DNA of 64,000 nucleotides from Gonapodya prolifera JEL478 (lineage: Eukaryota; Monoblepharomycota; Monoblepharidomycetes; Monoblepharidales; Gonapodyaceae), in contig KQ965748.1 in assembly GCA_001574975.1 (NCBI GenBank), positions 279,460 to 343,459 of the forward strand, given 5' to 3'. The translations under genes and the position numbers were made by a program. Shown here one piece after another: positions 40,694 through 62,808 of this stretch. A model generated the notes under the pieces. That model searched no databases. It was not told where the DNA came from and was given only the letters and a program-made list of their open reading frames with translations. Numbering within the stretch: the first letter of the stretch is position 1; the number at the start of each line of letters is the position of its first letter.

Positions 40694-42017
40694 ATGGACT
40701 ACTTCCCCGCATCCTGGGGCAACCCGCGCCCGGCCGGGACATCCGACGACGCGTTTCTGTCCCGAGGCAACGGCGATTACTTGGAGGCCGTCGCGTCGGG
40801 ACAGCGCAAGGCAGCAATGCAGTTGGGCACGCCTGTCACGCACACGCAGTGAGTCTGAGTCTTTTCCGGGGTGTGTGGTGCTTTTGAGGTGGTTGGTGGT
40901 GTGCTGAACGGGTGGTTGGCGTCGATGCGTTCCTGGTTGGACTGGGTTGCTCGGCGGACGGTGATGGTGTTTGTTGTGAAAAAGGTCGCCCATCATGACG
41001 GGCACGTCGGTCCTGGCCATCAAGTACAAGGACGGGATCATGATGGCGGGGGATACACTGTGTGAGTGTGGTTTCTGGTCGACGAGTCCTAGCGGGGTGT
41101 TGACTTGTGTTGAACGTAAAAACTGCAACGACCCCCACACCCTTCGTATCCACGGATAGCTTCGTACGGCTCACTGGCACGGTTCCGTGACACACGACGG
41201 ATCGTGCAGGCGGGGGACTATACTGTGGTTGGCGCGACGGGGGAAGTGTCGGATTACCAGCACATCAAGCATCTCTTGGAGGAAGTCCTGTGAGTCCCCT
41301 TCCCCCGGTTTTGGCGGACGAGTCTGAGGCTCACACCGACATCGACGCTGCCATTGCCGTCGCCGCTGATGGCATCAGAATCGAGGAGTACTACACCGAG
41401 GACGGACACAAGCTCGGCCCGCGCAACATCTTCGAGTACTTGTCGAGGGTCATGTACAACCGACGCAGCAACTTCAATCCGCTGTGGAATTATCTGGTCG
41501 TGGCTGGGTTCAAAGAAGGTGATAAGTGAGTTTCTCGGCGCCTTTGTACTGTGTTGTACTTGTGCTCTTGTTCTATTCACCCACCACCCCTTCTATCCCC
41601 TACTCCCCGCAACAGATTCCTCGGCTACGTCGACCTCCGCGGAACGACCTACCAAGCCTCGACGATCGCGACCGGGTACGGTTCCATGATTGCTCAACCT
41701 CTGCTCCGAAAAGCCGTCGAGGGACGCGAGAACGAGGTGACGGAGGAAGAGGCGCTCAAGTTGTTGGAGGATTCGATGCGCATTTTGTGGTATAGGGATG
41801 CGAGGGCGTGGGATAAGGTATGATGGAATGCGTCGCATTCTATGTACGAAGTACTTATACTCCCCCCACCACCCGACCACTGCTCCCTCCCCACCAAAAA
41901 ACCCCCCTGTAGATTCAAGTAGCCAAGGTGACGTCCGAGGGCGTGACTATTTCTGAGCCGTACAAACTTACGACGGACTGGACCGTGGGGGAGTACGTTA
42001 AGGGATACGGGGCATAA
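40694..42017 (+). CDS. PRE4: 20S proteasome subunit beta-7 (Pre4/PSMB4)
   Basis: Six exons (40694-40848, 40985-41061, 41160-41289, 41379-41525, 41616-41817, 41913-42017) join to 271 residues, the usual length. Landmarks: propeptide MDYFPASWGNPRP, then IMTGTSVLAIKYKDGIMMAG, SSYGSLARFRDTRRI, NIFEYLSRVMYNRRSNFNPL, WNYLVVAGF, FLGYVDLRGTTYQASTIATG, RILWYRDARAW, and the C-tail that reaches across the ring in this subunit. It is one of the non-catalytic beta subunits (no Thr1 after processing). It acts in the 26S proteasome in nucleus and cytosol. Genes on both sides are unrelated. Confidence 0.95.
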
Positions 42018-42168: not shown

Positions 42169-45100
42169 ATGTCTTCTTTTCCTGCACCGATTGGATTTTT
42201 GAGTGCGGACGACGACGTTCGGAGAGAAATCGAGTTCAGACCGGGACCGGGGGACGCGGGAGAAGTGGGCGGAAGTGGGCGGCGAGCAGAGAAGGAGGCG
42301 CAGATTCGAGAACTCGGGCGATTGACACGAAAGTGGTGAGTGGGGAGCGGTGCAATAGGGATCAGAGTGCGGCTGATGCGACGGAATTCCGGTAGGCTGC
42401 GCATGAAAGAGCGAGCGGCACAGGCAGCGGCGACGCAGGAGAAGGGGAACGAGTCTGCTGACACCGTGAGATTTCTTAGCTGCTTCTTTATCGAGCTGGG
42501 GTGGCGAATCTGTTGCTGCTGCAGGTGGACGAAAATCCGAATCCGACAAGACAGCCCCTTGCACCTGCAGACACGAACACCGTCGACCGCGTGGTGTCAT
42601 TCGCATTGGGAACTGCCACAGATAACAAAGCGGATGGTACGCCCGCGAAACAGGGGCCACGACTGGTCCGAAAGAAACTGCCTCTACCGAAAGCCCCGAA
42701 GAAAGACGGCACCGCACCGGACACGGCATCAAGATCAGAAGCCCAAGACCCAACCACCAGCGTAGCGCACACTATGGCCGACTTTGACGGAATATCGGTC
42801 GAACTGGGACTCTCCACCGACAAACACGACCGCCTTGCATCGGTCTCGTTCAACCTCTTCCCTTCCTCTCCCCGACCTCGTGCACCTGCCAATGCATCTT
42901 TGCATCCTCGCTCACCCACCACAACCAAACCCCACCCCACTGTTCCCACACAAGCACCGCCCCCTACCTCTGCCCCTGCCTCGGACGACGACGACTCCCA
43001 CACCGTCCCGCCCTGCAAACGCGTCCGCCTCACAAAGCAACCCGCAAAACGACCCCCGTTCACCACATCCATGGCGCCTTCGCCTTACAAACCCCCGCCG
43101 CACGCACTTATTTCCGCGTCGGCGTTTCTCGCCACCTCCAAAACGGCTTCCAAAGAGGCGCTTGGCGTTGGTTCCGCACCAACTGTACCGATAGGAGCAG
43201 CTCCATCAGCCCCCGCCACCGCCCTGACATTCACCCGGACGACTCTCGCCGCCGCGCGTTCCAAGCTTCACCTCGTGGGCACCCCCGGGCGCAAGGCTCG
43301 TACACGGCTCGATTCCACCGCGCAGAAGGTGCTTGCGGCGTACAAGAACATGCCGTTGACGAGACCTGGCGCGGCGGCGGTGGTGGGAGGGGGAGTGGGA
43401 GTGGATGGAGCGAGTAAGGCGGCGAGTTTGGTGGCTGCGTTTGGGAAGGGAGGTGGGAAGAAGGTCGGTGGGAAGGGCGCGGGAGTGGAAGGTGCGCGGG
43501 GAGGGGAAGGCAGAAGGGAACAGGAACGCAGTGGGGAGAGTCGACACGAAGAGGGCGAGGAGATGGATATGGACGTGGACATGGGTGGGTCCACCACGTC
43601 TGCATCTGCAAATGCAACGGCGACGGCCAAGGTATTGGCGGCATTTGGGAAGGTTGGAGGGAAGAAGGCGAGAGGAGGTGGCGGAATCGAAGCATTAGAT
43701 CGTGTAGAACGGGAGAAAGACCGGAGTGGTGGCAGTCAGCAAGGTGGGAATGGAGGTGCGGGAATGGGCGTGGATGCGCCAGAAACCACAGCGACGAAGA
43801 CGGCCAAGGTGTTGGCGGCATTTGGGAAGGTCGGGGGAAAGAAGGCGAGAGGTGGTGGAGGGGAGGAGGAACGCAGTGGCGAGAGTAAGCGCGACGAGGA
43901 TCGGGAGATGGAGATGGCGATGGGTGGGCCCGACATCCCGGCTACCCCGGCGGTGAATGTCTTGGCGACGTTTTGGAAAATCGGTGGGCAGGACGTTGTG
44001 CGTGGTGGAGTTGGGGTTGAAGAACCGAGTGCTGGTGCCGGTGTAGAGGCGAAGGGACACATCGCAACTTCGGATGACAAAAAGGGCAACGCCGCCCGGG
44101 AGCACGACGCGGAAGGAGCACTAGCGCCTGCAGCTGTAACCGAACCTCCCGCCTCGCTTGCCGCACCTGTCGTTCCTTCACATGAACCCGTCGATGCGCC
44201 CCTTTCGATCGTGGAAGGATCAGTATCTGCTATGGACTTTGTGGACGAACCATGTCCTTTGCAGACCAACGAAGCGGTATTATTTTCCCAGGACACTCCT
44301 GCGGATCCACCGTCTGGTCAGAACCACGAGTTGGAGACACCGCCATCTACTCAACCTGAGATCACCAAACCACCTTCGTCGGTCACGTCCTCAAATGCCA
44401 CCCTCGCCCGAGTATCTCAACAACTCTCCTCCCTCCAACCCGAGCTCACACAACCGCCACCGTCGTTCATGCCTTCTGCGAGCACCCTTGGGCACGCTTC
44501 CCAACCGCCCACACCTCCCACCCACACCACCGACGCCACTCAACTCACCACCACTCCCCACGCAGACCCACCCGCCTCGCACCCCCGGGAGTCCGCCGAG
44601 TCTGCCAAATCTGCCGAATCCGACGTCTTCGTGGACGCCGAGGAGGGTCGGTCTTCTGCCGGAACGCACGTTCAGGAGATCCAAGAGCACCACTCGACGC
44701 CCACCCGCGAGTCGCCCGGGAAGGAGAATGTCCGGCCGGGTGTTGTGTTGCCTCCAAAGGTCAGTTCTCGAAATCTTCATTTCGTTATCGGTTGCCCTAA
44801 CCCACCAATGAATACCCCCACAGTCCCCCTTCCTCCCCAAAGGCGACTTCACGCTCGCCGACCGTCTTAAGGCCGCCGGGATGCCCAAGTTCAACTTCGT
44901 GCAACCCTCGCCGCCTCCTGTCCCGGCCGGTGGGAAACGGGACCGGGCCAGTTTGAAGGAGCCTGACACCGCGTCGGACGGTCAAGGTCAGGTGAAGCGG
45001 CAGAAAGTGGACGTTTTGGGTCTCAGCGTGTCCCAGCCGAAGAATTCCCTTTCCGGAGGCGCTGTGCGAGTCCAAGCCGCCATCGTCGCCAACGCTGGTC

Positions 45101-46065
45101 CGCAAGCGCCGAAACCTGGGGTGGGCTTGACGTCGAGTTCGTGGAAGACGAACAACACGAAACCCCCGCGGGCGCCTGCTCCTGCTCGGTCCCCCGTCGT
45201 GCAAGCGCAGAAGGGATCCTGGGCCGCCGCTTGGCAGCCTGTGCCGGTCTCGCTTAACGCACCGATTTCGTACGCGCATGCGCAGGGACAAGCCCTACGG
45301 AACCCGAACCCCGTGCCCCCGGTACCTCCGCCTCGTGCAGGTACCGAACATCCCAAACCAACACCTCACCCCGCCCCCGCAGCGCGCCAACCACTCCCAC
45401 CCGCGACAGCGGCCGGGGCTATGAAGAACCCACCTAAACTCGTCGTTCGGGGACTTGCAGCTGCTGCTGCACCACCGGCTGAACCGACACGCGCCATATA
45501 CGAGCCGTCTCCGCCTCCGCCACGACCAGCAGGAGCAGTTCTTGCGACGCCGCCGAGTACTGTCGGGGTGGAGAAGGGCGGGAACGGGAAAGGAGGACCG
45601 AAAACGGAGGGTGCCCCGATGCCGCCCCCGCCGCCGCAGAGTATCGTAGACGCGAATGGAGGGGAGATACCGGATATTCCGAGCGAGTGAGTTGTGTCGC
45701 AGGACACTGTTCGAGTGATCTGTATAACACGATATTAACGCCGACCCCTCTCCCGTCGAACCCAGCGACGAATCGGAGGACTCCCCGCGCGCGTCGGGCC
45801 GCACCCCGCAATGGGCACGCGATAAGAGCGTCCACGAAGCCTTGATACGGCAGTCGCAGTCGCAAGTTCCCGTCGAGGATATATTTGGGGAGGTGGACCC
45901 GAATGTGGACCTTGAAGGTGGGTCTCGGTTTGGGCCAGGGTTTAAGGTGCAGACCGAACAGGTGCTGACGGTTTTGGCTCCACAGCGATATTTGGTCGGC
46001 CGATCAGGAAGCTCAAGGGACGGAGGTCGTCTGTGAGGTGGTTAAAAGATGACATGTCTCCCTAA
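42169..46065 (+). CDS. INCENP/Sli15-like protein 1 (chromosomal passenger complex)
   Basis: Six exons (42169-42335, 42396-42465, 42525-44759, 44824-45686, 45766-45917, 45986-46065) give 1188 residues. Most of the protein is disordered, Pro/Ser/Ala-rich and basic. The C-terminus is an IN-box: GGEIPDIPSDDESEDS, TPQWARDKSVHEALIRQ, VEDIFGEVDPNVDLEAIFG, then RRSSVRWLKDD, matching the INCENP pattern of Trp-x..L..Q-x..P..IFG..LE.IF followed by a (R)-S-S-x-x-W end. The SS before W is the TSS-like Aurora B target. The last exon supplies the second IF and SS-W parts. Role: binds and activates Aurora kinase; localises to centromeres and spindle midzone. Residues about 280-500 carry a repeated AAFGK-VGGKKARGGGG unit. 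No clear N-terminal Survivin-binding CEN box is seen. Confidence 0.85.
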
Positions 46066-46267
46066 TGGGTGCTGCATGAATGTGTACAGGGCGTTTGGTT
46101 TTCTTCCCGAATCGGGGTTCTAGTGGGGCTGGGGAATAATGATTGAAGGGTTGCATTATAACTGTATAATACCGAGCGCATCAATATCACCCCTGTGAGG
46201 TGGTACATTTGTTTTATTGTCCTCAACGTATGTATCAAACGAGCACTTCACGAGTTCAGTACGATGT

Positions 46268-46963
46268 CTAGTCCTCCCACCCGTCCCGCTCCCGATCCAT
46301 GTACCAGTCAATCACCTCCGCCGCAACTTGGAGTCCGACGGCAATCACCAACACCCATTGCAGAACTCTTTCGGCGGTCCCGAGGGTTGCGAGGTTGATC
46401 AGCAGCACTGCTCGTTGCCTGGACCCGAGCGAGGAAAGAAGCTCCGCGACGGGGCGGACGTCCGGCTTGGAAGGGGACAGGATGGAGGAGATGAGAGAGC
46501 TGCTGGAGGCGGGCGAGACGAGGGCAAGCACCGCCGAGAGGGCGGGGCGGTACCAGAAGAAGCGCCAGAGGAGAGCCACGACGTAGAGGCCTGCGAAATG
46601 GGCGATCCGTCACGCTGCATCATTTTGACAAGAAAACAGCGACTTCTCACCGGCAGAGAGGTAATCTGCGCCCCTCCCGTTCCTCATAACGTGGACGGTG
46701 AACAGCGACGGCAGTGCGATCCACCGATTTGCCCACTCCAGCCTCGCGTACCACCTCGGCCCCGTAACTGCCCACGTGCGCAGGTACTGGACTGTGACCG
46801 CCGCTGCTACGTCGACAGATGCGTCGGATGTGAGTGGCGAAGGCGGGTATGGCGACAGGAACAGCAGATGCGAGTGCGTGGATCCCGCGAGTAAGGCGGC
46901 AGACGCAAGCAGCGCTGCGGTGACGTTGGGCAGCGTTTTGTCCCGCAGGATTCGGTCTGTCAT
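46268..46963 (-). CDS. Small multi-pass membrane protein, unknown
   Basis: Two exons: start MTDRILRDKTLPNV at 46963, intron after RNGRGADYLSA, second exon beginning LYVVALLWRFFWYRPAL and ending DWYMDRERDGWED at 46268. About 210 residues. Hydrophobic stretches at roughly residues 14-40, 104-125 and 165-190 suggest three or four membrane spans. No family is recognised with confidence. Confidence 0.6.
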
Positions 46964-47167
46964 CGGTGGGGTGTTGTGGTGGGGCCAAAGCAATCGGTTG
47001 AATTGCAGGCAATGGAAGTGCACAACCAAAAGGGCCGGAGATAATTTCCTTGTGGACCTACTACAGCATTATAAACAGGATCAACGGACCACGCAACTAT
47101 TGCCGTTCACCGGAGAGACAAGCCATCAGATAGGTCCAACCACAGTAGTCCTCGTCAGCTTCATTTA

Positions 47168-49187
47168 TTACATAACGTTAGCGAGTACGTAGTCAAGTAT
47201 AGCTTTCAGTGCGGCCCAGTTCTCTTCGCTAGTCGGTGCGATTTCCGTCGGTGACAACCGGAAACCCAATCCCTAATGTCAACATTATATCACAAAGCTC
47301 AACACCTGCACATGATCTGAGCTGCAATCACAACATCTCCACTCACAAATCCACCTTCCTCAGGCGTAGGTCTCAGTTCGATCGTGTACGAATACACCCG
47401 TCCCGTGCCGTTTCGGTCGTTGGTGACCTTTGAGTCCACGGTGCTGTCCCACGCCCAGTCCGCTGCCGTGCCAGTCGTTACGTATACTTGGAAGTTGGGG
47501 AAGAGGACGAGTGAGTGATAGATCAGAGGTGTGAATCTTGAACTGCAGGACTCACAACCGCGTGCAGCTGACGACAACGGTGCAAAGGAGCCATGAGATT
47601 GACCGCTCAGCTACGCCCCAACAAGTGAACAGCTCGAAGCTCACTCTGACTCGTATACACTTTCCCCGACTGGGCCGCAATCGCCGCCGCACCCGCCTGT
47701 CCCGCCTCCTTCAACTTTGCTTCCTGATCACTCTTTACATCATAAGTGTACCCTGGCGGTCGCAGGATCAACTGCGAATACGAGTGGTAGTGGATCGAAA
47801 GCACGGCGGATGTCAGGGTGGACAGGAAGTTGGCGGTGATGACTTGTGTTTCGGGTTCGGAGAGCGGGGTGGGGCCTTGGTAGTCTTCGTAGTCGATTTC
47901 GGTCGAGGCGCCGTCTGGATCCTGGATGCAGAGATTTTCGCGTCAGAGTTTGCCAAGGAGTTTGGCGACAATGTGTGTACTTACCGTGCCCTAACCAGAC
48001 GGATAGTTCCTGGAGTGGCGGGTGGATTCCAGACCAGTTGCAATACGTCAGTGACAAATGGGCATTGGCCTCCTTCCTCGAGCAGACTTACCTGTTCAGA
48101 TCAACGCAAAACTCCGTCGAAGTCGGAACAGCCGGTCGTGCATTCTTCCTCCACAAGCGCTCCGCCGTCCAGCTATAATAAAGAACTCCACCTTCTCCAG
48201 CGTCTCTACAGCCCAATTGTGGTCCGGATCCGCAGGATCGGAGAAGGAGGAAACGAGTTTGTGCGCAAGGTACTGAAGGGTTGACCCCGAAACCCATTCG
48301 CGGGCGTGGATGAGGCCTTGGGTGTACACCTGCTTGACGCCAGGCGCCTTTGGTGGTAGTGCACCGATTCGGACCATGATCAAGTCTTGCCCCTCGTAGG
48401 ATTTGCCGATGGACCCGTTGACCGATACGAGAGTGGGGTAGGCCGCCGACATACTGTAGAAGAATTGTACGATTTCGGCGTTTGTGTCTGGGCGTTTGGA
48501 GGGATAAGAGCAGCTGTGGGAAGGCAACACGCGCGGCAAGAAAGAAGTTGCTCATGGTATGCTGTGAACCAAGAGTCGGGGTCGTATGCTAGTAGGGTCG
48601 TGGTGCGTTGTGTTGTCGACGACACCTGAGAATATACGCAGAAATGAAGGAGTGAGCAATAAGTCGTCGCCCAAAGCAAATGGAACTACCTTTCGTGCTC
48701 TAATGTTCGCCATGTTCTCCCTTTCCACTTCGACTTGTAGGTTTTCGCTCAGGATAGTGACATGGACGGCGTCACTACCAAGCTCTGGAATCCCTTTGCA
48801 CTCTTGACACGAACGTCTACTGCTCGACTTCCGTCGTTCAAAGCAAGTAATTCCCAAACGTCAAGTGACTTGATTTTCCGAAGTTTTCCGACGAGCTGAG
48901 CTCGGACCGAGTCGGGATCAGGTATTACGGTTGGTGGAATTGAAACGCGGACGAGTGTTTCATTTTCGTATCGGACAGGGGTTGCGCAAGTCTTCAAGCG
49001 TAGACCTAGTGGAAGGTGTTCCGATATCACACAACACGTGAAATTTAATACAAAGAACCGCTTTTCGAAACCAAGCCCCACGTCAAAGAACATAGTCACC
49101 TGGAGATTGAATTGGTAGTGAATTGACTCCATGGAAGCTCAGCAGCAGTAACACGAGCAGAGGGATTACGAATGAAAAGGATCGCAT
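47168..49187 (-). pseudogene. Secreted M14 zinc carboxypeptidase, damaged
   Basis: Starts with a classic signal peptide MRSFSFVIPLLVLLLLSFHG (49187). Propeptide region: PVRYENETLVRVSIPP, KIKSLDVWELLAL, DAVHVTILSENLQVEVERE. Catalytic part: YPTLVSVNGSIGKSYEGQDL, TQGLIHAREWVSGST (zinc His and Glu), WTAERLWRKNARP, FCVDLNR, HYHSYSQLILRPPGYTYD (third zinc His), and the catalytic Glu in SYTIELRPT. It ends at 47168. Two lesions: a one-base loss near 48800 inside VDVRVKSAKG, and a larger loss near 48190 where the family's V-P-V-x-NPDGY should stand between LEKVEFFI and YSWTAERL, with a frame change. As read it cannot make an active enzyme. Fungal relatives digest peptides outside the cell or in vacuoles. 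Confidence 0.8.
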
Positions 49188-49595
49188 CAGCACCAAGAAA
49201 CGAAGGAACTGGGCTGACAGTCGGATCAAACACCCAAGGAGAGCAAAAAGTGAATCGATTTAAGGTCAAACGAGGCTTGCTTGAGGTATCGGAAGGCACT
49301 TCATGAACTCAAATGGTGGAGAATTCGAGGGTGCGACTATTTGAGTTTACAAAACGCCTCCTCTCTCCAGCTCTGGGCGAGCGATGCACTCAAGTTACAA
49401 GTTCGTTCATTCACCCCTTCTGTGGAGTTTATTGTCGCGGTGGCGCTGGTTGATCTCCGCCGGCAAAATTATTGCAATCACGAACTCTTTTGATTTACGA
49501 CCGAGATAGCTCATGCGACACCTAACTATTCAACATTCAATGGAGTCACGCGCGGAGGCTCATCTTTGAAAAGGGTTCAATTCACACACAAAATC
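49188..49595. other. Carboxypeptidase promoter region
   Basis: About 400 bp between the carboxypeptidase start and the 3' end of VPS26. No gene is seen. Confidence 0.5.
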
Positions 49596-51316
49596 TCAGA
49601 ATCGCATGGCGCCGTTGAACACATTGCCGGCATGCTGGGCGTAGTTTGGCTGTGCGCCCTGGTCTCCGTTCGTGAGAGCGTTGGGCTTGCGTTGGAACAG
49701 TCAGTTATCACAGAGGGGGAGACTGTTGCAGCGGTGGACTCACCTCTGGCATGTCCTCGCCCATCTCGCCCTTCACCCTGTAAATGGTGACTTCCTGGAT
49801 CGAGGAGAAAGGTCAGAAGGTATACAAAGCGACAGTCACAAATCCGTCCTCGAACCTGCTGTTTGAAGTATCGGCGATTTTCCTCGTCGATAAGAACCAG
49901 GTTCAGGTAATAGCGTGTGGAGAAGCGTTTGTTCACGTCACGGTACGTCGGTGTCAGTTCGAATCCACTCAAGAAAAGCCGGATGGGAATCGTCTCTCCC
50001 CTTGCGGGAGCGCCGTCCATGATTTCAAACTTGGTGATCGTTTCGGATTCGTTGTATTGGTTAGGAGCTGCGCCGACGTTGAGAATAAGGAGGGGAATTA
50101 GTTTGAACTAATGAACCTGCCGAAGGATCAGAAAAGAAGTACTTACGAGAGCCGGTTGTTTCTCGCCGAATAATGGAGAGCTCCATGTGTCGCACTTTGA
50201 TGCGGACAAGCAGAAAGTAAATTTTGCCAATAATCACATCCTTCAAATGGTATCTTGTCACCAGACACGTTCAATCAGTGTCGTGCCGGACATGACCGGG
50301 CGGGTGGGGCGACTCACTTGTTTTTATTGTACTCGAACTCAATGTGCAACGCGTCCTCGATCCCCACTTCCATCTTGATGCTCTGGTTGGCGTCCGTGGG
50401 CATGCGGTAGCTGTACACCCACACGTCCTTCTCCTTGGAAATGTCTGCGAGGCGGCGAGTGATGGACACGCGCACGAAGTACCTGGGGTTGGAGGTCGGG
50501 TGAAAATTCGGTCCTGTCCGCGATGCCGCAAGGTTGACGGAGAACGGAGGAAGGATAGTACCTCAGCTTGACGTTGATTCCAAAGTAGCTCTCGTACTGC
50601 TTCTCCACGTTCTTGAACTCAAACTCGTAGCTCGTCGTGCCCCGAATTTCGCCCGGAGCCGCGAGTTCCTGACGCAGAGAGGCGAATTCGGAATGTTGGC
50701 TCCGATCGGAAAAGAGTTCTGGGGAACGGAGCGGTAAGACGTTTTGTGGAACGCGAATGAAAGGTATCCGTGCGGACTCACCAATCATGCCCACAAATTC
50801 GACTTTGATCCCATTGTGCTCTATTCGTTTGTTATCCCTCACGTGTATTTTGACCTGCGCGCGTCGAAGTGAGGGAGTACTTCAGTGTCCAACAGCACCC
50901 ATCCAGAAGACCACGATTCAACGTTCCGGCAAGCGTTCCACACCGCACCGAAGTCATAGATCTCATTGTCTCGTCCCGTTTTCCTTATGTTCACCAAGAA
51001 TAGCGCTCGATACCGCGTCGCAACCCATGTTCTGTCGTGACTTCACGCAACTGCATTCGTCGGCTCAATTCACGTCCAACCCTCGCCACCCATCCATCCC
51101 ATCGACGAATTCGCGCGCGATTTCCTCCCGCTGGCGACCGTTTTCGCTCATACGGTCCTTACCCACCTTCCCCGACACCGATTCGCCATCGAGGTACAGC
51201 GGATACTTGGCTTTACGGTCCTTGTCCAGCCGCACTTCAATCAGTTTTCTGCGGTCCTCCCCGTCGAGCGCAATGTCGATGTCCGCGGTCGGTCCGAGAC
51301 CGAATAACAGTGACAT
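49596..51316 (-). CDS. VPS26: Vps26, retromer cargo-recognition subunit
   Basis: Multi-exon gene from MSLLFGLGPTADIDIALDGE (51316) to NVFNGAMRF (stop at 49596-49598). Landmarks: KYPLYLDGESVSGK, IEHNGIKVEFVGMI, TSYEFEFKNVEKQYESYFG, NVKLRYFVRVSITRRL, DVWVYSYRMP, IKMEVGIEDALHIEFEYN, YHLKDVIIGKIYFLLVRIKV, HMELSIIRRETTG, IMDGAPARGETIPIRLFLSG, ELTPTYRDVNKRFSTRYYLN and LVLIDEENRRYFKQQEVTIY. The arrestin-like fold is complete. Vps26 with Vps35 and Vps29 sorts receptors from endosomes back to the Golgi. The introns are short, and the last exon holds only a Gln/Asn-rich tail typical of fungal forms. Confidence 0.95.
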
Positions 51317-51561
51317 TGCAGTGGCAGTTCACAAGTTGTGCTGAGTACCGTCCGGGTCAAATTTGCCTTGAGCAATATCCACCGAAAACCGCTCGCGATG
51401 GATGGGTTTCAATGATTGGTGCGATGGAAACGTGTACGAGGTGGTCGAAGATATCAATGAAAGCCTGTCCCGTCTCACTGCTCCACACTTCAGCACCGCC
51501 TTGACTTTCGTAGTACATACTCATAAATGCAAATGATACTCAAAATTGTAATACAATGAGT

Positions 51562-54500
51562 TTAATTCGAAAAGCCCATATCCTTGTTATACGTTCCCAC
51601 TTCGTCTTGCGTGAGCTTGTCAGTACCAACCCAATGGGCAGAAGAAGATCGTGGACGGAACTTGCCCTTCCGTTTGGGACGAAATACCTCTGATTGCATC
51701 AACAAAGGTGCCACAGCGTCAAATGAAATCCAGCAAAAACACCTTCCAAAAGAGTGGAAACTCACCGTCAAGCTCGATGGTTGTCTTCATTGCACCGAAA
51801 ATTGCCTCGGGGTTAGTGTTTTGGTGTTGTAGCAAGGCCTGTTTGACGTTGGGGGTGTTGGCCCAAGACGGGCGTGGGGGCGCTTCATCGCTGCTAGATT
51901 CCCTGAACAGAACAAGAGAAGTTGGTCGCACAAGAAACACTTTCGTGACGAATCGAGAATGCAACGCACCCGCTATCGATCTCAGGTATTTCTCCGCCGT
52001 GAAGATCTGTAATACTCTCGGGTGTCTCCCCGCCTATTTTCGATAGCGACGCGTTGAACGCAAATGTTGCAGGTAAAAAGGGATTTGCGATCGGAGCTAC
52101 GGATGTTGCTGTTACTTTCGTTGGGAGTTGTTTCGAAGGGATTCCAGATGAAGACGTCTGCTTCGCGTAACGAGGGAGGAGCCGGAATGAGGCGTACTCG
52201 TCTGCCATTTCGAAGAAAAGGGTGACCTACATAAAGGTTCGTTCGTGCCTTCTTCAACGTTTGCTCAGCTTCGTCGTCTGGCGTTGCATTTTCGCTGGGA
52301 ACGTTATCGTCCTCTCTGGCACGCTTCATAGGCTTTAAAACAAAACACGAAAATTAACAGCATAGCCTCCTCCCAACAAATCGACAAAGATATTCTCACG
52401 GGTGGTTCCGGACGATTTAGGCCTTTTGCAGTAAGAGCGTTGTTCGCTTGAAGTTTAGCTTGAACAATGGAAATCGCGCTTGGCGGCTTCAAATAAATAG
52501 CGCAAGTGAGCTCAACATTATCTGCCAAAAAGAGAACGGTGGTGTGGACTCACGCCAGCAGGTTTGGGCAGCACGGTTTTCACTCCGACCTTGGCACAAG
52601 TGATGGCTCCACTTGCACCTTGACCCGAAGCCAGTGCTGTCTTCTTCGCCTTGACCTCTTGCCTCAGCTTCTCCCTCCTCTCCTGCTCCTGTCTTTCCTT
52701 CTCCTTGGCTTGAGCTGCACGCTTCAGAGCCGGAATATCGTCCGGCGCCCGTTTCGGGACCACAGTGGCAGATAGAAGAGGTCGACCTGATGCCCTTGGA
52801 ATAAATGAACCTGTGCCGCCTGCAGGTAATACCTGCTGCCAATACAAATTAGGTAAGAATGAGAGCGATTTGTAGTCCACAACGGGACATATACCTTGCT
52901 GCCTACACCATTCGCCGTTCCTATAGGCTGTGCTTCCTCGAGAGAATTATCGTCTTCCATAACTGGAGGCAGCGTGGCGACAAAGTTCGCCGCGATCGGG
53001 TCCTGATTGAAGTCGAAATTGAAGTCCTTTGACGCTGTTTCCTTTGGTTGAGAGCGCTCTCCCTGTGCAGAGATCGGGGATTCCGGGGCAGATTCGAACG
53101 CCATCGATTCCTCATCTTCTAAGGCTGGAGAGTGCATGAACAGAGTACCCTCATCCCTCTGCGGTGACGAAAATGGAATCGAGGACAGTTGTGTTGCGAA
53201 TAATGTAGGTTCGGCAATGCTACCCAATCGACCGAAAGGACTGCTGGGTAGAGTGTTGGCTGCAAATGTTGGTGGAGGGCTTGCCGGAGCCGAGGCAGTT
53301 GGTTGAGCATTGCTCTGCGACGGGGCAGGTGACGTGAGGGGGTTGGGATATTGATCAACTGGCTCCGGTTGTGCAATAACAGGGACTTGTTCCTTCGCGG
53401 ATTAGTACAAGAGATGGGGACGAGTCTGGAATCAGCTGAGTTGACTTCACAATTCAAGGATTTGAAAGAAACGTACCTCCGGTTTAACTTCCTCGGGGAT
53501 CCTTGGTAGAGGTTCAGCAGTCAAGAAGCTGGTATTAAGTACCGAAAGTGCCTCCGCGTTGCTCCCTCCAAGTTTCGAAATGGTCAACCTCCCCGGGGAC
53601 TCCTCCCGTGGCTTATACGACTGCCTCCCTTTCAAAATTGCCAAACGATGCCTCAGATTCTCAAGTGTCTCGCGAACATTTGATGGGCGAACATTCTCCT
53701 TCTCGGGTAAAGGTTCGGGTTCCACCTTCTGCTTCTGGGGTAGTCTGATGGGAGACGGTAGAGCAATGGACGTCGACGAGAGTGAGATGGAGATGGATGG
53801 GGAAGCAGGGGGACTCATTATCGGGTTTGCGAGATATGCTGGAGCGGAGTTGGAGGGAACAGAAACTGGTGTTGGCAGAACGCTCTGTTCTGCCGGTCTG
53901 TCTCCTCCCACCAATCCCGTCTCTACACCAGCCGCGGTCCCGATAGTGCTCGTGAGTCGAGTACTTGCCACGCTCCAGCTCCGCTGCCCTCTCAACAGCT
54001 TAGGAAGCTTCGGCAGCTGACTGAACGTATCCGGTGGCACGGGCACCGACTCCACTTCGGATCGGAACTGGTCCACGAGTTGGGCTCTCGGTGTAGGTTC
54101 CCAGTCAAAGTGGAAGAACGGCGAGGGACGCGCGATTGAAGGGAGTGCGGTGTTGACGGGCGTGACGAGTGGGAAGGTTTTGTCAGCGTGGGCGGGAGCT
54201 TGCGGTCGCCGGAACGACGAGGTGAACTCTTTGAGTGTGTCGAAAGGATCGGTCGGCTTTGTGGGTGCAGCGCTGGGTAAGGTTGGTGCGGGTGCATTTG
54301 CAGCGGTCACCGTAACCGTGTGAACAGAAGAATCTGTAGTCTCTGGATTGGGTTGAGCGCGATCTCGTTTCTGTCGCTTGGGAGGTGGTGGTTCCGAAGA
54401 CGCGTCGTTTGCTTCTGTTTCTTCGCGAGCGGAGGAACTAGAGTGTTTGCCGGGTGCCAAGAACCGGATAGCACTTCGAGCAGTGACGGTTGAGTTGGAG

Positions 54501-55569
54501 TCGGTTCTTCCCACATGTTCATGTTCGTCGAGAGAGTCTCTCTCCATGGCGACAGAGGATTCGGGGTGCGTTGGCTCCTGTTCCTCACTAATCTTTGGCG
54601 ATGCCGATGGAGAGACAAAATTCCTGGGCGATTCCCGAGTACGCTTTTCGTCGGATATTTTGGGTTCCGGAAGGGGCTTCGGGCGTGCTATCCTGCGAAC
54701 TTTCCGAGGAGGCGGGATTGGTGTTTTGTCCACGTCGCTTGGTACAGGTGCCGTAGCATCCACTGTTGAGACGTCGACTGGTTCTGGTTCGGGCTCAGTA
54801 AGAACAAGTGGTACAATCGGTTCGGGCACGGCATCCGGTTGCTTGGTTTTTGGTCGACCGCGTGCCTTCTTCGCAGTGGAGGGAGGTTCGATCGTGGATG
54901 CTGACGCGACGGATACGGGGGATTGTGGAACGGGTTTTTGCGCGGCCTTCGCCTTTCTACCGCGCTTAGCTGGTTCAGGTCCATGTGGCAATTCCACCAC
55001 GATCTCGGTGGAGTCGGTGGCAGTCGAGCTGGCCAAGGATACTCGAACTTTTCGCTTCTTTTGAGGGGCCGCTTTCCGTCCAGGCGCGCGCTGACGTCCC
55101 TTAACTGACCGAATCTCCGAGGATAATGTTTCGTCCGCTTCTGACTCTGGTTGGGGAGGTTCCACCATGAATTCTTTCGACTGTCGAGAAAGTCCGCGGC
55201 GCGAGCAGCCCGATGGAAAGGCGTAAGGATGGGGCAATAACTCTCAAGAAGACCTGTAACTGACCTGATTGCTGGTATTCGATCCTCCCGGGACGGCCGC
55301 TTCTCGTGCCATTCGGGTACGTGCTCGAGTCCTGGATGGCACCGACCCCCGATTCGACAGCGGGCATCAAACCATCAGATATCACAGATAAACGAATAAA
55401 GGCGCGGGGACGCTCACCATCGGGCGCCAAGTTCCTTGAGTTGGGCTGCCGCTCGTTTCCTGGTTGGCGACTCGTTCCGGCGGAACACGAGCGGGCCAGC
55501 ACTGTGCCAGAGTGTTTCAGCAACGTCTAAACATTCGTATCGATCCTTCCGTCGCGTGCGCCGTGACAT
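51562..55569 (-). CDS. INCENP/Sli15-like protein 2 (chromosomal passenger complex)
   Basis: Start MSRRTRRKDRYECLDVAETL (55569) joined through a short exon (TRARTRMAREAAVPGG) to a large exon 55205-53460, then further exons. Over 1000 residues, largely basic and disordered with many Pro/Ser/Lys runs (KKARGRPKTKQPDA resembles an AT-hook). A charged single-helix-like segment AQAKEKERQEQERREKLRQE (about 52680) fits the helix of INCENPs. The C-terminus is an IN-box: DLHGGEIPEIDS, SSDEAPPRPSWANTPNVKQA, LLQHQNTNPEAIFG, TTIELDEVF, then FRPRSSSAHWVGTDKLT, ending MGFSN at 51562. It matches the Aurora-binding pattern, with an SSS-x-x-W end. It is a second, diverged IN-box protein in the same window as 42169-46065. 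Confidence 0.85.
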
Positions 55570-56007
55570 CGCCGTGATGGTTTATGGCAATTGCAGAGGT
55601 GGTGCCGGGGCCACCCTGACCAACACCCCCAAAGATGGGGAGGCAATTGATTCCGGAGATTAGGACAATTAAAATCACAGTGAAATAAGCTTAATCATAA
55701 ACGAGATGGGCTCAGTTTCGAAACTAGTTGGCGAAACATTCTACACCACCATGTTGAAGATAATATGAGTGCTTGCTTTCAAGGTGCGATACACATGTAG
55801 GTTGATACGTTCCACTCGCGATGGAAATGTGCCGGGCGATCTACCTTCGCCCCGGCAAAACCCGGCAAAGGTTTGTACAGCCGACACACAATTCGAATTG
55901 TCACTCTACCATTCTACCATGGAGTATAAAAGGTCTGGTCAACATGCATCAGACACTTTCTCTCAATCAGACCTCGTTGCTTCACCCAATCAAGCTATCC
56001 AAACCCA
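55570..56007. other. Divergent promoter, INCENP-like 2 / DUF4188 gene
   Basis: About 440 bp between divergent starts, including the TATA box at 55925. Open pieces here have no domain. Confidence 0.5.
55925..55932 (+). promoter_or_regulatory. TATA box of DUF4188 gene
   Basis: TATAAAAG lies 83 bp before the ATG at 56008. Spacing suits a TATA-driven, inducible promoter with a short leader, unlike most genes here, which show no TATA. Confidence 0.65.
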
Positions 56008-57043
56008 ATGCCTTCCGTCTCGATGCCCGAACCATCCCCAAAGCCATTCAACGGCCTGCGAACTCCCATGATGGACTTCGCACCGTTACCCAAGTCCCTC
56101 CTATCAATTAGCCACTTCGTCGCCGTCGGCATGATCGCGACGGCCTTTATCCCTCCTCTGTGGTCATTGGCAGTCGCCGGTGCGCTAATCCTCCCGTCAT
56201 TCGTGCCCTGGGCTGCCCGCGTGGCTGGACTGTTGCAGGAGCCGAAACTGAAGGAAGTTCGTGTGGGACGACATACAACGAGAATTGAGGGCGACTTTGT
56301 GGTGTTCATGATTGGAGCAAAATGTGAGTAATTGCTTTGACGCAGATCGACTGGACGAATTCTGCAGCTCATTCAACTTCAATCTTAGGGAACGGGCCGA
56401 ACCCTATTAACCCAGTGTTCAAGCAAATTGGCGAAGCCTTCACCGGCATGATGGAACAACTCAAAGCCGCTCCCGATGTGTGGGGCTACCTTGGCTCCGA
56501 ATCCTACCTTGGGATGGACACAAACGGACCGGTTCGTTCCTGACTGCGACCTGTCTGTACTTCTCGCCGCTAACCTCGCGTCGATGTCCTTCTCAGTCCA
56601 TATGCAATGTCATATACTGGCGGTCTTTCGACCACCTCACAACCTTTGCTCGGTCTCGAGATAGTCGCCATTTCCCCGCCTGGAAGTTCCTGATGGAACA
56701 CGGGAGGAAGAACCCCGCTGTTGGCGTGAGTGATGAATACGTGGCGAAACACGCGACCTGGATCTGATTTAACCTTTCCTTCGCTAGTTCTGGCACGAAA
56801 GCTACATGGTCAAGGCGGGCCAATACGAAAACATCTACGCCAACATGGCACCGATGGTGAGAGTCGCCCCGTCGAACTTGTGCCTGGTATCTCATTAGTA
56901 ACTCCCCATCTCCTCTCCGCGCGCAGGGTCTTGGCAACTGTCTGCACACCGAGACGTTACCGGCCAAAGGTCACATGTCTAGCGCGAAGGGGCGTGCGGG
57001 TATGACAAAGGGGGAGGACTACGTTACAGAACTTGGCAAGTGA
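56008..57043 (+). CDS. DUF4188-family protein (monooxygenase-like)
   Basis: Five exons (56008-56323, 56389-56531, 56597-56725, 56788-56856, 56927-57043) give 257 residues. The N-terminus has a hydrophobic segment LWSLAVAGALILPSFVPWAA, probably a membrane anchor. The domain proper: GRHTTRIEGDFVVFMIGAK, WNGPNPINPVFKQIGEAFTG, GYLGSESYLGMDTNGP, YWRSFDHLTTFAR, WKFLMEHGRKNPAVGFWHES, then YENIYANMAPMGLGNC. This is the DUF4188 pattern, a ferredoxin-like dimeric fold found near oxidative enzymes in fungi and bacteria. The biochemical role is not known. The tail is Lys-rich. Confidence 0.85.
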
Positions 57044-57349
57044 GTAAAACATAAAACGATCATCCTCAGCAGTATCGAGATCGAGATTGATGGAACTTTT
57101 TTCCTCTTACAGGCCTGATTACTGAGTCCGAATTTTTTACGGGGGACTAGACGGAACCCCACTCCTGATACTGCACTGACACTCAAAGCATTTACTGTAC
57201 AAATATGGCATACACTCATAAAATGTAGTTTTCCTCCATGAATTTAATGTTGGAGAAATTTAATTCCCAATTATTTTAAAAAGTACTTCGGTCGGTGCCA
57301 GGGCATCTGAAGTTGGAAAATCTTTCGAACCGACAAGTCAACACCACTC
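57044..57349. other. Intergenic, GluRS promoter
   Basis: About 300 bp. Partly A+T-rich (57230-57290) just before the glutamyl-tRNA synthetase start. No gene is seen. Confidence 0.4.
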
Positions 57350-60300
57350 ATGGCCATAATAAAGATCACGGCCTCGCAGAAGCCATCCGGGGCGGCGTAT
57401 GGTAGGAATCTCTCCCTTGACATCCCACAATGCCGAACTCGTGCGTTGATACGACAATGCTTCCCCGACGAAACACCAGGTCCCCTCGCCATCGCCGCAT
57501 ACATCAACGAACACTCGACCGCACCGGCAGTAGAGGTATCCTTCAGCGCGGAGCAGACGGCAGATATCTCTACCGTGACGGATGGGTGAGCTGTGATGCT
57601 TCGCGACTCGCCCGTAATACTCGCCGACTCATTACCGTTGGTTTCGAAGGAAACCACTCTCTGGAGCCATTTCCGTGGCTCGCTTTCTTGCTCGGTCGTA
57701 TCCTGCGCTGTACTACCTGCCCAATGATCCTGCGTTTGCCGCCTCGGTCGACTGCTTCGTGGAAATCGCCCAGGATTCGTTGTCGCTGACGGATTTCAAG
57801 AAGCTTTCCATCGCTCTGGCACAGTTGGATGGTCACCTTACATTGAGGAACTACTTTGTCGGCTATGAATTGAGTCTGGCGGACTTTGCTGTGTGGGGTG
57901 CTCTTCGAGGTGCGTTACCCCCACACAAGTTTTAACTCGCCCGGGAGAACGGAACACTGATGCTGAACCCATCAGCAAACGCCATTTTCCAGCACCAGGT
58001 CAAGACGAACGGACCTATCGGCGTCCACCTCCTCCGGTGGTTCAACTTCGTCTCCTCTTTGGATTGCGCTGTCTCCGCAGTGGAGTCGTTGAAGAAGGCC
58101 GGCGAATCAACGAAGGTGCTATCTTTTGGATGTACCTGGTGTATGTGGGGGTACTGACGGTTGCCATATGCCCTTCAGAACACCGTCGACCAGGGCAAGT
58201 TTGACATTCCGCTTCCCGATGCGGAGATGGGAAAAGTCGTCACGCGCTTCCCTCCCGAGCCTTCCGGTTACTTGCACATTGGACACGCGAAGGCGGCGCT
58301 GTTGAATGACTACTTTGCGCGATCCTGGAATGGAAAACTCCTGCTTAGGTTTGATGATACCAATCCCAGCAAGGAGAAGGTGAATTGGAGCTACTTCCTT
58401 CCCTACTTATATTAACATGCTCACCATCGGTGTTTTTGCTACCTTCAGGAAGAGTTCGAGACCTCCATCAAGGAAGATTTGGCTCTCATTGGCATCAAGC
58501 CCGACGTTGTATCGCACACCTCGGACCACTTTGACAAACTGTATGACTTCGCTTTGGCCCTTATCAAGAAGGGCAAGGCTTACGTTGACGATACCGACCA
58601 GGAGACTGTGGGTGACGCGCGCCTGAAGCTCTTAGTATCAGCGGATTGCTAACGGCGCGTTTGGACAGATGAGGGCGCAGCGGATGGATGGAATCGAGTC
58701 GAAATGCCGTGACCTCTCCGTGGACGAGAACCTGCGTCGGTTCAAGGAGATGACCGAGGGAACCGAATGGGTACGTATTAGTACTTCTGATGACCAGTCA
58801 GTCCGGCACGACAATGATTGAGCCCTTCTCCTGGACTAGGGTGTGACCGCCTGTCTGCGAGCCAAAATCTCGATGACGAACCCAAACAAGGCCATGCGTG
58901 ACCCAGTCGTCTACCGTTGCAACCTGGTTCCGCACCACATCACTGGTTCAAAGTACAAGGTTTACCCAACATGTGAGGCTTTGGCGCATGTGTTTTTATT
59001 TTTGTGGGTTTAAAACTGTTTTTGCTTTGCAGACGATTTCGCGTGCCCGCTTGTGGACAGTATCGAGGGTGTCACACACGCACTCCGGACAAACGAGTAC
59101 CGCGACAGGAACGACCAGTACCAATGGATGCTGGAGGCGTGTGGAGTGCGCAAGGTACACCTTTGGGACTTCAGGTGAGTTTGGAGGCGTCTCCGTTATC
59201 ACTCGTCCTCTGGGATTGTTCACCACATTGCGATTACTATCTTATAGTCGTCTCAACTTCGTGTACACCCTCTTGTCCAAGCGCAAGCTGACGTGGTTCG
59301 TGGCCCAAGGACTCGTCAAAGGTTGGGATGACCCTCGCTTCCCCACCGTTCGGGGCATTCGGCGACGGGGACTAACCATCGACGCGTTGCGTCAGTACAT
59401 TTTGATCCAAGGAGCTTCGCAATCTGCTGTTTTGCTGGAGTGGGACAAGCTGTGGGCTGTGAATAAGAAGGTCATCGACCCAGTGGCACCAAGGCACACG
59501 GCGATTGAGAAGAAGGCAATGTGAGTTCACCGAAAGGGGACGGTCGTATCTGAGCTATTTAATTATTGTGGCTCTAGTGTGAAAGTCCATGTTCTGGATG
59601 AGACTGTCTCGACCGACGTGAAAGATCTTCCAAAGCACAAGAAGAACCCCGCTGTTGGCACCAAACGAACCACCTTTTCCAGCGCAATTTACCTTGAGCA
59701 GACAGACGCTCGCGAACTCGTTGTGGACGAGGAGGTTACCCTGATGGACTGGGGGAACGCCTTCATCAAAGCCATCCGGAAGGCCGGGGACGGCACGGTG
59801 CAGGAAATTGACATTCGCCTCAATTTGGACGGAGACTTCAAGAAGACCAAGCGGAAGCTTACGTGGCTTTCGCAGGTGGCTGTTGGAACGAACGGGAAGG
59901 CCGAAGCGCCGGCGGAGCTCAAGCTGAAGGATTACGACTTCTTGATCACGAAGAAGAAGCTCGAGGAGGACGACGATGTGGCGGACTGCTTGGCTCCAGT
60001 CACGGAATTTGCGACTGAGGCGGTGGGCGATGTGAACTTGAAGCTCTGCAAGAAAGGTGGTTTGGTGCTCCGCAGTGACAATGTCAACCTTTTACTGACT
60101 CACTGACTCACTCTATCAAGGGGACATCATCCAGCTGGAGCGGAAAGGATTCTTCATCATCGATGTACCTTACGACTCGTCTTCTCGCGTCATCGAACTC
60201 ATCCTCATCCCCGACGGCAAGGAGAGCACTGTCAGCAAGGCTGCCGAAGCTGCGGCGAAGGTGGCGCCGGCCAAGGGAAAAGCGCCAAAGAAGGAGGACA

Positions 60301-61557
60301 AGGCAGGCGCTGCTGGCTCGGCATGGGCCAAGACCAAGGCTCCCACTCCGGCCAAAGCCTCCGCGCCTGCGGCGTCCGCACCCGCCCCTAGTGCCCCGAA
60401 AAGTGTTCCGTCGGCACCCGCAAAAGCCGTGGCCAATGGCGTCTCGTCAGCACCATCTCCCATCCCCGCAGGGGACGCGGTTTCGCAAATGTACCACGTC
60501 CCTCCCGTGTACGGTGTAGTGCCCCTCCCGTTGCCGAGCGAGACTTCGCAGATGTACGTCGCGTCGAGCCCGTATGGATCGTGGAGCGCGCCAGGAGAGG
60601 TCGTGGCGAACGGGTCCTCTGCAAATGCACCTGCTCCTGTCGTCGAGGCTTCCGTGGTTGAGGTGAAGAAAGAGGCGACTTCGGCCCCGAGTGAGGAGAA
60701 AGGGAAGAAGGTTCGAGTTTCCGTTGCCTTTGTGTGCCCTCCGGTTGTATCAACTCGTTGGGACAGGGCAAGGACAAGGCGAAAGGCAAGGAGGCCGCAC
60801 CTGCTGCTCCCAAACCTGCCGGAGCGGAACCAACGAGTGACTGTAAGTTTCCTCAAAGCGTTCCATCCGCAAGCGTTACAACTAAAGCGGGTGTTCTCGA
60901 TCCTCCAGCGCTCATTTCGAAACTTGACATCCGTGTCGGCAAAATCAAGTCCGTCCGCAAACACCCCGACGCCGACACGCTCTACGTCGAGGAGATTGAC
61001 GTCGGGTTCGTCTTCCCACCCTCATTGCTCGCTTCCCGTTTTCGTTCACGGTTTGCTTTCTTCCCTCCCTCCTCCCGTCCAGCGAATCATCCCCCCGCAC
61101 AGTCGTCTCCGGTCTCGTCAAGTACCTCCCCGCGTCCGCTCTACAGGACCGCATGGTTCTGGTCCTGTGCAACCTGAAACCCGCGTCGATGAGGGGGATT
61201 AAGAGTATGGCGATGGTGCTGGCGGCGAGCAGTAAGGGCAAGGAACATCTCGAGCTCGTGGCCCCGCCTGAGGGGGCGAAACCGGGTGATCGGGTGTCGT
61301 TCGAGGGACATGAAGGTGGGTTGCTTGTCGGCCTCTGTCTTTGTCGACGACTGAAGTTGAACTCGGGACACTTTGTCTCGATTATAGGCGCACCCGAGGA
61401 GCAGCTGAATCCCAAGAAGAAAGTCTGGGAAACGGTCCAGCCCGACTTCTCTATTAGCGAGGACCTGGTCGCGACGTGGCGAGGTATATTCTTCAGTGTT
61501 GCCGGAGGAGTCGCCAAGATTACGGACAGTAAGATTGTTGGTGGAAGTATTAGCTAA
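57350..61557 (+). CDS. Cytosolic glutamyl-tRNA synthetase fused to EMAPII/Arc1-like domain
   Basis: The GST-like N-domain ([49 protein letters not shown]) leads to the class I core: [20 protein letters not shown] (HIGH box), [66 protein letters not shown] (KMSKS-type LSKRK), then the beta-barrel anticodon domain to [20 protein letters not shown]. The frame runs on through an Ala/Pro-rich linker (60200-60720) with two SQMY motifs into [64 protein letters not shown]: the OB-fold of Arc1p/EMAPII/p43, ending at 61557. In yeast Arc1p is a separate cofactor of GluRS and MetRS. The start at 57350 is the most upstream in-frame ATG; its first residues are uncertain. Confidence 0.9.
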
Positions 61558-61825
61558 TGTACACACCTATGGAGACTCTTCGATGAATGTCTGTAAGAAA
61601 AACCCAATGGTTTATGATAGCGCGCTCGTGAATATTTGCAATCGACCCCTTTTGCTATGGATTCGAGTAACTAGGCAGATTGGATACTACTAATTAGAAC
61701 CACCACCGAGCAGAATCTGACTATCACTAAGCGTATGATGATTGCAGGAAAACATCAGAGCCTTTTCCACACGATTCCGTGACACGTCCAAACTTCTGGT
61801 AAGCCCTACCACTGGTCCGCGCTTT

Positions 61826-62573
61826 TATTGGACTTTCTTTGGAGGAATCTCCTGGCTCTTTGTCTTTTTGAGAGCGGTCTTGACAGATGCGTAGTCGCGA
61901 AGATTCAAAAGTGTGAGGTTGCTGGACGCGTGATGTCAGCAACAATCCTCTCTCGTACCACTTCCAAAACTAGACTCACATCACAACACCCATGACCATG
62001 CAGCTCAGACTAAGCCAGTAGTCACGTTGAGCGCGGACGCTGTCATTGCAAAAGATGAGGAACGGCGTTATGGCCTTTGACGCGTAATAGGGATGGGGTA
62101 AGACACTCACTATCGAAGCCTTTCGTTGAGCGGCATGAGCTTCGACCCGACGTCCCCTGAATCAGCCGGCTCCTCGTATATGATACGAATGGCGTCAAGA
62201 AAGATGATGCCGGTGACAGCCCCGATCACACCGAAGAGTGTTACTGACGTTCGGAACAGTCGGACGACAGAATTTGTGAGAGGGGAACGGCACACGACAA
62301 TAATCAGCGTCTGGACGGCAGAGTCTGGTGTAGAAATGACGGTCACTCACGCGCAAACGTGGGTAGATTGATCGATTGAACGAGGTTTGATTTCCTGTGG
62401 ATGTGACACGTTTCTGTGAAGCCATTCCGAGCGGTTGTCTGGCTATCTCATCGGAGCGATCGATAGCAGAATAATACGTACTGTCTCCGGAAGATTGGAA
62501 TCGCCAGGAGAAGGTAGAAGGCGACCAGAACATAGAATGTTCCGGCTTCCAGTGTTAGAAACAGCGATGCCAT
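61826..62573 (-). CDS. BAP31/Yet-like ER membrane protein
   Basis: Start MASLFLTLEAGTFYVLVAFY (62573), a first membrane span, then LVQTLIIVVCRSPLTN, VTLFGVIGAVTGIIFLDAIR with a second span, PLNERLR, then QRDYWLSLSCMVMGVV (third span), and the last exon LTLLNLRDYASVKTALKKTK to PPKKVQ at 61826. The three-span layout, FLDAIR-type motif after span 2 and the final KKVQ (a KKxx ER-retrieval signal) fit the Bap31/Yet family, here without the long cytosolic coiled coil. These proteins help export and quality control of membrane cargo at the ER. Confidence 0.6.
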
Positions 62574-62808
62574 CTTTGATCTGGGTGGAAGGAGTACAAA
62601 GCCGTCAGAAACAGTAATGGTGAAGTGGGGGAAGGTGAAAAACACCTGTTGACGTGTCAATGGTTTGAATTTGGGACGAATCGAAGCGCTAAGTCCGGGC
62701 CTTCACTCCAAAAGCCCGACCAAGCAAATATAGAATTAGTAAACTCGTGCACTGTTCTACATTCGTCCTTCAAGAATAGGGTACTTGTTGACAGTGACAG
62801 TTGAAGTG

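What the first reader, a model, noticed from the sequence alone, without database searches (positions are those of the whole stretch)
42169..55569. Two different INCENP-like (IN-box) genes about 5.5 kb apart, converging
Seen: both encoded proteins end with an acidic GGEIP(D/E)I segment, a Trp, an L..Q stretch, an IFG, a second IF/VF and an SS-x-x-W motif. One runs plus (42169-46065), the other minus (51562-55569). Known: fungi normally have one INCENP (Sli15/Pic1) that activates Aurora kinase. Inference: an old duplication with strong divergence may have split roles, for example mitotic and meiotic or centromere and midzone, giving two chromosomal passenger complexes. Outside the IN-box the two look unrelated, so domain shuffling is also possible.
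Basis: partly seen in the sequence, partly recalled or inferred. Interest (0 to 1): 0.85.

Follow-up and report, generated by a model that had tools for sequence, protein, structure and literature searches.

The report
Two INCENP genes in a fungus
A water fungus carries two strongly conserved, long-diverged versions of INCENP, the scaffold that switches on the cell-division kinase Aurora, although only one Aurora kinase was found, so one kinase may be placed and switched on by two different scaffolds.

Summary
The window is from Gonapodya prolifera JEL478. Gene A (+, 42169-46065) and gene B (-, 51562-55569) both pass the Pfam INCENP profile and keep WA, IFG and SSxxW. B is a canonical fungal INCENP with a charged helix and C-terminal tail. 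A is a divergent paralogue lacking both. Their N-terminal helices match and three introns share position and phase, so whole-gene duplication fits better than domain shuffling. A-type also occurs in Gonapodya sp. JEL0774. A shared loop residue and a weak tree place the split after the lineage left Dikarya. A 79-86% identical copy of the region on contig C25 holds both genes intact. Between copies each IN-box has 22 silent and 1 replacing codon, so neither is decaying. On C25 the genes lie 60 kb apart on one strand. One Aurora locus and BIR (Survivin-like) loci were found. Two INCENPs are known in Apicomplexa; five paper searches showed no fungal case. Separate roles remain inference.

The parts
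42169..46065 (+). Gene A, divergent INCENP paralogue, 6 exons (42169-42335, 42396-42465, 42525-44759, 44824-45686, 45766-45917, 45986-46065), 1188 aa
   Evidence: spliced model; PF03941; C25 copy keeps all frames and splice sites; C-terminal 696 aa annotated as P0004
42169..42465 (+). Gene A exons 1-2, N-terminal helix region RELxxLxxKWxxxxxRA; intron 1 splits the Trp codon in phase 2
   Evidence: A vs B 0 of 2000 shuffles reach the score, A vs P0005 0 of 2000; intron phases
43230..43349 (+). A-type conserved block M2 (residues 315-354, FTRTTLAAARSKL...GTPGRKAR...VLAAYKN)
   Evidence: 11 silent and 1 replacing codons of 40 between C18 and C25; shared with P0005
45640..46065 (+). IN-box region of gene A (end of exon 4, exons 5 and 6), ends SSVRWLKDDMSP, no fungal tail
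   Evidence: PF03941 hit residues 1108-1165; 22 silent, 1 replacing codon of 92
51562..55569 (-). Gene B, canonical fungal-type INCENP, 10 exons (55418-55569, 55265-55331, 53477-55180, 52895-53392, 52554-52835, 52400-52486, 52231-52332, 51970-52157, 51766-51902, 51562-51689), 1114 aa
   Evidence: spliced model; same as annotated P0001; PF03941
55265..55569 (-). Gene B exons 1-2 with N-terminal helix (residues 37-62); intron 1 splits the Trp codon in phase 2 as in A
   Evidence: helix in the model, block pLDDT 43-70
52620..52742 (-). Charged single helix of gene B (DDIPALKRAAQAKEKERQEQERREKLRQEVKAKKTALASGQ)
   Evidence: helix 840-876, block pLDDT 71-96; 9 silent, 1 replacing codon of 41
51562..52016 (-). 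IN-box and fungal C-terminal tail of gene B, ends SSSAHWVGTDKLTQDEVGTYNKDMGFSN
   Evidence: PF03941 hit 1022-1074; tail helix 1100-1109; 22 silent, 1 replacing codon of 103
48997..49431 (.). Rearrangement breakpoint between A and B relative to the second copy on contig C25
   Evidence: window 48455-48997 maps to C25 237531-238106 (+), window 49431-63832 maps to C25 174744-160225 (-)

Best explanation
A and B are two INCENP paralogues made by duplication of a whole gene in the monoblepharid lineage, before G. prolifera and Gonapodya sp. JEL0774 separated. B kept the usual fungal build: N-terminal helix, charged single helix, IN-box, SSxxW and tail. A kept the N-terminal helix and the IN-box with SSxxW, has neither the charged helix nor the tail, and carries its own conserved middle blocks. 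Shown: both genes, their intact frames, shared introns, purifying selection on both IN-boxes, one Aurora locus found, BIR-domain (Survivin-like) loci. Inferred: both IN-boxes wrap and activate the same Aurora by the known TSSxxW mechanism, and the different scaffolds place the kinase at different sites or times, so that A and B share out the work of one ancestral passenger complex.
For: PF03941 above cut-off for both. Four IN-box loci in the genome, two A-type and two B-type. A vs B N-termini: 0 of 2000 shuffles reach the score; A vs P0005 0 of 2000. Introns: a Trp codon in phase 2, the codon after GGEIPxIxS in phase 2 and the codon after L(E/D) in phase 1 are split identically in A and B; a fourth (phase 0, 23 and 22 codons after the split Trp) is near but about 4 columns off in the local alignment. 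IN-box dN/dS between the C18 and C25 copies 0.01 for A and 0.03 for B, against 0.35 and 0.24 over the whole genes. A and B alike have one extra loop residue absent from 8 of 8 other IN-boxes aligned, and GGEIP absent from the 6 of those rows that cover it; the tree joins A and B at 87/88 and A-type with P0005 at 100/99. One Aurora locus on C131 (two exon matches at 66 and 69% identity to the query; the other seven matches 31-43%). TSSxxW mechanism: passages of PMC6639382.
Against: No expression, binding or localisation data. A25 vs B25 N-termini are weaker (32 of 2000 shuffles reach the score) and B vs P0005 N-termini are not significant (1064 of 2000). The middles of A and B show no homology (177 of 200 shuffles reach the score). 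No B-type protein from JEL0774 was found. The tree is mostly unresolved (1 of 10 inner branches starred, 6 open, long-branch warnings). The N-terminal helix of B is not especially constrained between copies (1 silent, 3 replacing codons of 27). Absence of the charged helix is a crude measure: Neolecta P0002 lacks it too. Structure models are low in confidence outside short helices (mean pLDDT 38.2 and 39.8).
Confidence: 0.62

Rival explanations
1. A and B sit together in one passenger complex (or bind Aurora in turn as redundant activators), with no division of labour; dosage or robustness keeps both.
For: Both keep the kinase-contacting motifs seen in other IN-boxes; in Plasmodium both INCENPs are pulled down with one ARK1 (passages of PMC12946202).
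Against: Each has conserved regions of its own (A: M1, M2, M4; B: charged helix, tail), unexpected for simple redundancy.
Confidence: 0.22
2. Domain shuffling: an IN-box cassette was added to an unrelated protein, giving A.
For: The middles of A and B do not align better than shuffles (177 of 200 reach the score); the two C-terminal introns would travel with a cassette.
Against: The first two exons also match: 0 of 2000 shuffles reach the C18 score (32 of 2000 for the C25 pair), and the same phase-2 intron splits a Trp codon.
Confidence: 0.07
3. A is a decaying or non-activating remnant, for instance a competitor that binds Aurora without activating it.
For: A lacks the tail found in B and in 6 of 6 other non-animal IN-box proteins aligned; its middle (residues 81-790) evolves fast (dN/dS 0.43).
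Against: IN-box 22 silent vs 1 replacing codon of 92, and SSxxW kept in 3 of 3 A-type proteins. Decay is excluded; an inhibitory role is not.
Confidence: 0.09

Closest known systems
Fungal INCENP (Sli15/Pic1 type; here P0002 Neolecta, P0003 Microbotryomycetes, P0006 Marasmius, P0007 Gloeopeniophorella, P0008 Yarrowia)
   Same: B has the IN-box, SSSAxW and the C-terminal tail ending MGF; A has the IN-box and SSxxW.
   Different: The searches returned one INCENP from each of these fungi (not a census). A lacks tail and charged helix, and A and B share an extra loop residue.
INCENP-A/INCENP-B of Plasmodium and INCENP-1/-2 of Toxoplasma (PMC12946202, passages read)
   Same: Two divergent INCENPs with one partner Aurora (ARK1), lineage-specific duplication.
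   Different: Per those passages the apicomplexan complex lacks Survivin and Borealin, there are three Aurora paralogues, and the Plasmodium and Toxoplasma INCENPs lack the TSS site. In Gonapodya one Aurora locus and BIR-domain loci were found and both proteins keep SSxxW.
Two INCENP orthologues of the diplonemid P. papillatum (PMC11633173, passages read)
   Same: Two INCENP genes in one species.
   Different: There one copy has lost the IN-box; here both IN-boxes are kept under strong selection.

Membership tests
INCENP, gene B | IN-box (PF03941) above curated cut-off | tested here: met
   46.6 bits vs 22
INCENP, gene B | TSSxxW-type phosphorylation motif | tested here: met
   RSSSAHW; motif from PMC6639382 passages
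INCENP, gene B | Charged single alpha-helix / coil before the IN-box | tested here: met
   28-mer 79% E/K/R/Q; helix 840-876 at block pLDDT 71-96
INCENP, gene B | N-terminal helix binding Survivin and Borealin | tested here: inconclusive
   helix 37-62 predicted; its partners not testable
INCENP, gene A | IN-box (PF03941) above curated cut-off | tested here: met
   35.4 bits vs 22; 29.1 bits for the single-frame match in the genome search
INCENP, gene A | TSSxxW-type phosphorylation motif | tested here: met
   RRSSVRW in 3 of 3 A-type proteins
INCENP, gene A | Charged single alpha-helix / coil before the IN-box | tested here: not met
   no such segment in A_C18, A_C25 or P0005; not universal, P0002 lacks it by the same measure
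INCENP, gene A | N-terminal helix binding Survivin and Borealin | tested here: inconclusive
   matches B's N-terminus; only a four-residue helix at low confidence in P0005
INCENP, both | Binds and activates Aurora kinase | not testable with these tools
   no co-folding or assay available

The most novel reading that the evidence does not exclude
A flagellated fungus builds two different passenger complexes around one Aurora kinase: a canonical B complex and an A complex whose scaffold lacks the microtubule-tethering helix and the fungal tail and carries its own conserved blocks, used at another place or stage (for example the nuclear divisions before zoospore release, or meiosis).
Probability: 0.35. 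Interest if true: 0.68.

Novelty: new variant of a known kind. Interest (0 to 1): 0.5.

Why it matters
INCENP duplication in Apicomplexa has been tied to loss of Survivin and Borealin and to several Aurora kinases (passages of PMC12946202). Gonapodya has two INCENPs with one Aurora locus found and BIR-domain, Survivin-like loci present, so it could separate those causes. It would also be a natural test of how far the scaffold alone decides where Aurora acts.

Tried and rejected
Considered and set aside: (1) pseudogene A, ruled out by the IN-box codon counts; (2) pure IN-box shuffling, made unlikely by the N-terminal match and introns; (3) A as a replacement for TPX2: a TPX2-like locus is likely at C2:512070-512352, two adjacent pieces of 24.4 and 22.9 bits, each just under the 25-bit cut-off, so this is not needed; (4) Borealin: no match at E 0.001 and a best match of 15.9 bits at E 0.52, under the 24.4-bit cut-off, but no control genome rang, so absence is not shown; (5) a wider family search with a five-row alignment gave 5 proteins, P0001 included, of 7990 scored, so the spread of A-type outside Gonapodya stays open; (6) fold searches were not run because both models are low in confidence.

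A paper search for Gonapodya with ploidy and heterozygosity gave 0 papers; two for Gonapodya prolifera with genome terms gave listings only.

Full report
What is there. The window lies in contig C18 of a 47.6 Mb genome. Two window proteins match database entries of Gonapodya prolifera JEL478 at 100% over the searched region (P0001, P0004), a monoblepharid fungus. Gene A (+) has 6 exons and 1188 aa; gene B (-) has 10 exons and 1114 aa. Both hit PF03941 over its full 55 positions at 35.4 and 46.6 bits, cut-off 22. P0004 is a shorter model of A that starts inside exon 3; my longer model rests on the matching C25 copy, on P0005 and on the introns shared with B.

More than an IN-box in common. Local alignment of the first 90 residues of A and B gives a score that 0 of 2000 shuffles reach; A against the first 100 residues of P0005 (Gonapodya sp. 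JEL0774) also 0 of 2000. Results the other way: the C25 copies of A and B, 32 of 2000; B against P0005, 1064 of 2000; the middles of A and B, 177 of 200. Introns: the first intron splits a Trp codon in phase 2 in both; in the IN-box region, one phase-2 and one phase-1 intron fall in the same codon column in both. A fourth, phase-0 intron follows the split Trp codon by 23 codons in A and 22 in B, but in the local alignment it is about four columns off. A whole-gene duplication followed by fast change in the middles explains this best.

Differences. B has a charged helix (28-mer with 79% E/K/R/Q, helix 840-876 at block pLDDT 71-96) and a C-terminal tail helix 1100-1109. The tail (ending MGF, MGY or MGH) is in B and in 6 of 6 other non-animal IN-box proteins aligned (five named fungi and the unnamed P0009), and missing from 3 of 3 A-type proteins. 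A-type proteins have conserved blocks of their own: DGISVELG (2 silent, 0 replacing codons of 8), a 40-residue basic block (11 and 1 of 40), a KEN sequence (3 and 1 of 12) and LADRLKAAGMPK... (4 and 0 of 18). KEN is recalled as an APC/C degron and was not tested; B has it on C18 but not on C25. The crude helix measure also finds no such helix in Neolecta P0002, so its absence in A is not unique.

Age. A and B share one extra residue in the loop after IFG, absent from 8 of 8 other IN-boxes aligned (five named fungi, P0009, human, worm), and GGEIP, absent from the 6 of these rows that cover that place. The IN-box tree joins A and B at 87/88 and A with P0005 at 100/99, but only 1 of 10 inner branches is starred and long branches meet. 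I therefore place the duplication in the monoblepharid lineage, before the two Gonapodya species split, with moderate confidence. No chytrid other than Gonapodya was among the proteins found, and no B-type protein of JEL0774.

A second copy of the region. Blocks longer than 200 bases on contig C25 match 52,796 of the window's 64,000 bases at about 69-87% identity. C25 holds both genes (A 79%, B 86% DNA identity), with all donors and frames kept; acceptors are kept except 2 of 9 in B, where an in-frame AG lies three bases upstream. Between copies dN/dS is 0.35 (A) and 0.24 (B) overall, 0.01 and 0.03 in the IN-boxes. In codons, the IN-box proper has 22 silent and 1 replacing in each gene (of 92 and 103); the slightly wider stretch of B used (110 codons) has 4 replacing changes. 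On C25 the genes are both on the plus strand and about 60 kb apart; the breakpoint is at window 49.0-49.4 kb. Convergent neighbourhood is thus a feature of one copy; which order is older is not known.

Partners. One locus on C131 reads as Aurora (best PDB matches Aurora A and B, E down to 1.8e-114; 60 of 107 shown). The other seven of nine matches at E up to 1e-20 are at 31-43% identity and were not examined one by one, and 147 of 382 candidates were scored. The Aurora DNA finds only itself. BIR-domain matches pass the cut-off on C188 (two, one with a stop inside the six-frame match) and C55 (one); the two loci resemble each other at 74-89% over the aligned pieces. A BIR match is not proof of Survivin function. 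A TPX2-like locus is likely; Borealin is undecided.

How it would work. PMC6639382 (passages) describes the IN-box wrapping the kinase and the phosphorylated TSSxxW motif stabilising the activation loop. Both A and B keep SSxxW, so the same mechanism is inferred for both. PMC4571873 (search listing and start of abstract) describes the INCENP coil as a single helix that binds microtubules; a scaffold without it should hold the kinase differently. This step is inference.

What is known. PMC12946202 (passages) reports two INCENPs in Plasmodium and Toxoplasma and repeated duplication in alveolates alongside Survivin/Borealin loss; PMC11633173 (passages) reports two in one diplonemid, one without an IN-box. 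Searches of the paper library (titles and abstract starts only) showed no report of two INCENPs in a fungus or of a Gonapodya passenger complex; one search listed 20 of 566 papers, so this is not exhaustive. Both genes are already automatically annotated as INCENP-domain proteins, so the new part is the pair, its history and its selection pattern.

Noticed in passing
window vs G000:C25:125000-287999: C18 and C25 are divergent, rearranged copies of one region (about 67-92% identity in blocks). A proteasome gene pair at C18:60 kb and C25:426 kb suggests the match runs over most of both contigs. Other genes are single (3 RPB2-type loci; Aurora) or mostly so (MCM: 9 loci, one look-alike pair C134/C149), so only part of the genome seems doubled, as in a hybrid or diploid with patchy loss of heterozygosity.
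   Followed up: partly
window 46573-48454: About 1.9 kb next to gene A, reaching into a zinc carboxypeptidase (M14) gene, has no counterpart at the matching place on C25.
   Followed up: partly
window 41530-41817 (+), 49577-50559 (-): Neighbours: a proteasome subunit gene upstream of A and a Vps26 (retromer) gene between A and B.
   Followed up: partly
window 43424-43990: Gene A holds imperfect repeats around VLAAFGKVGGKK in its middle; P0005 shows one look-alike.
   Followed up: no
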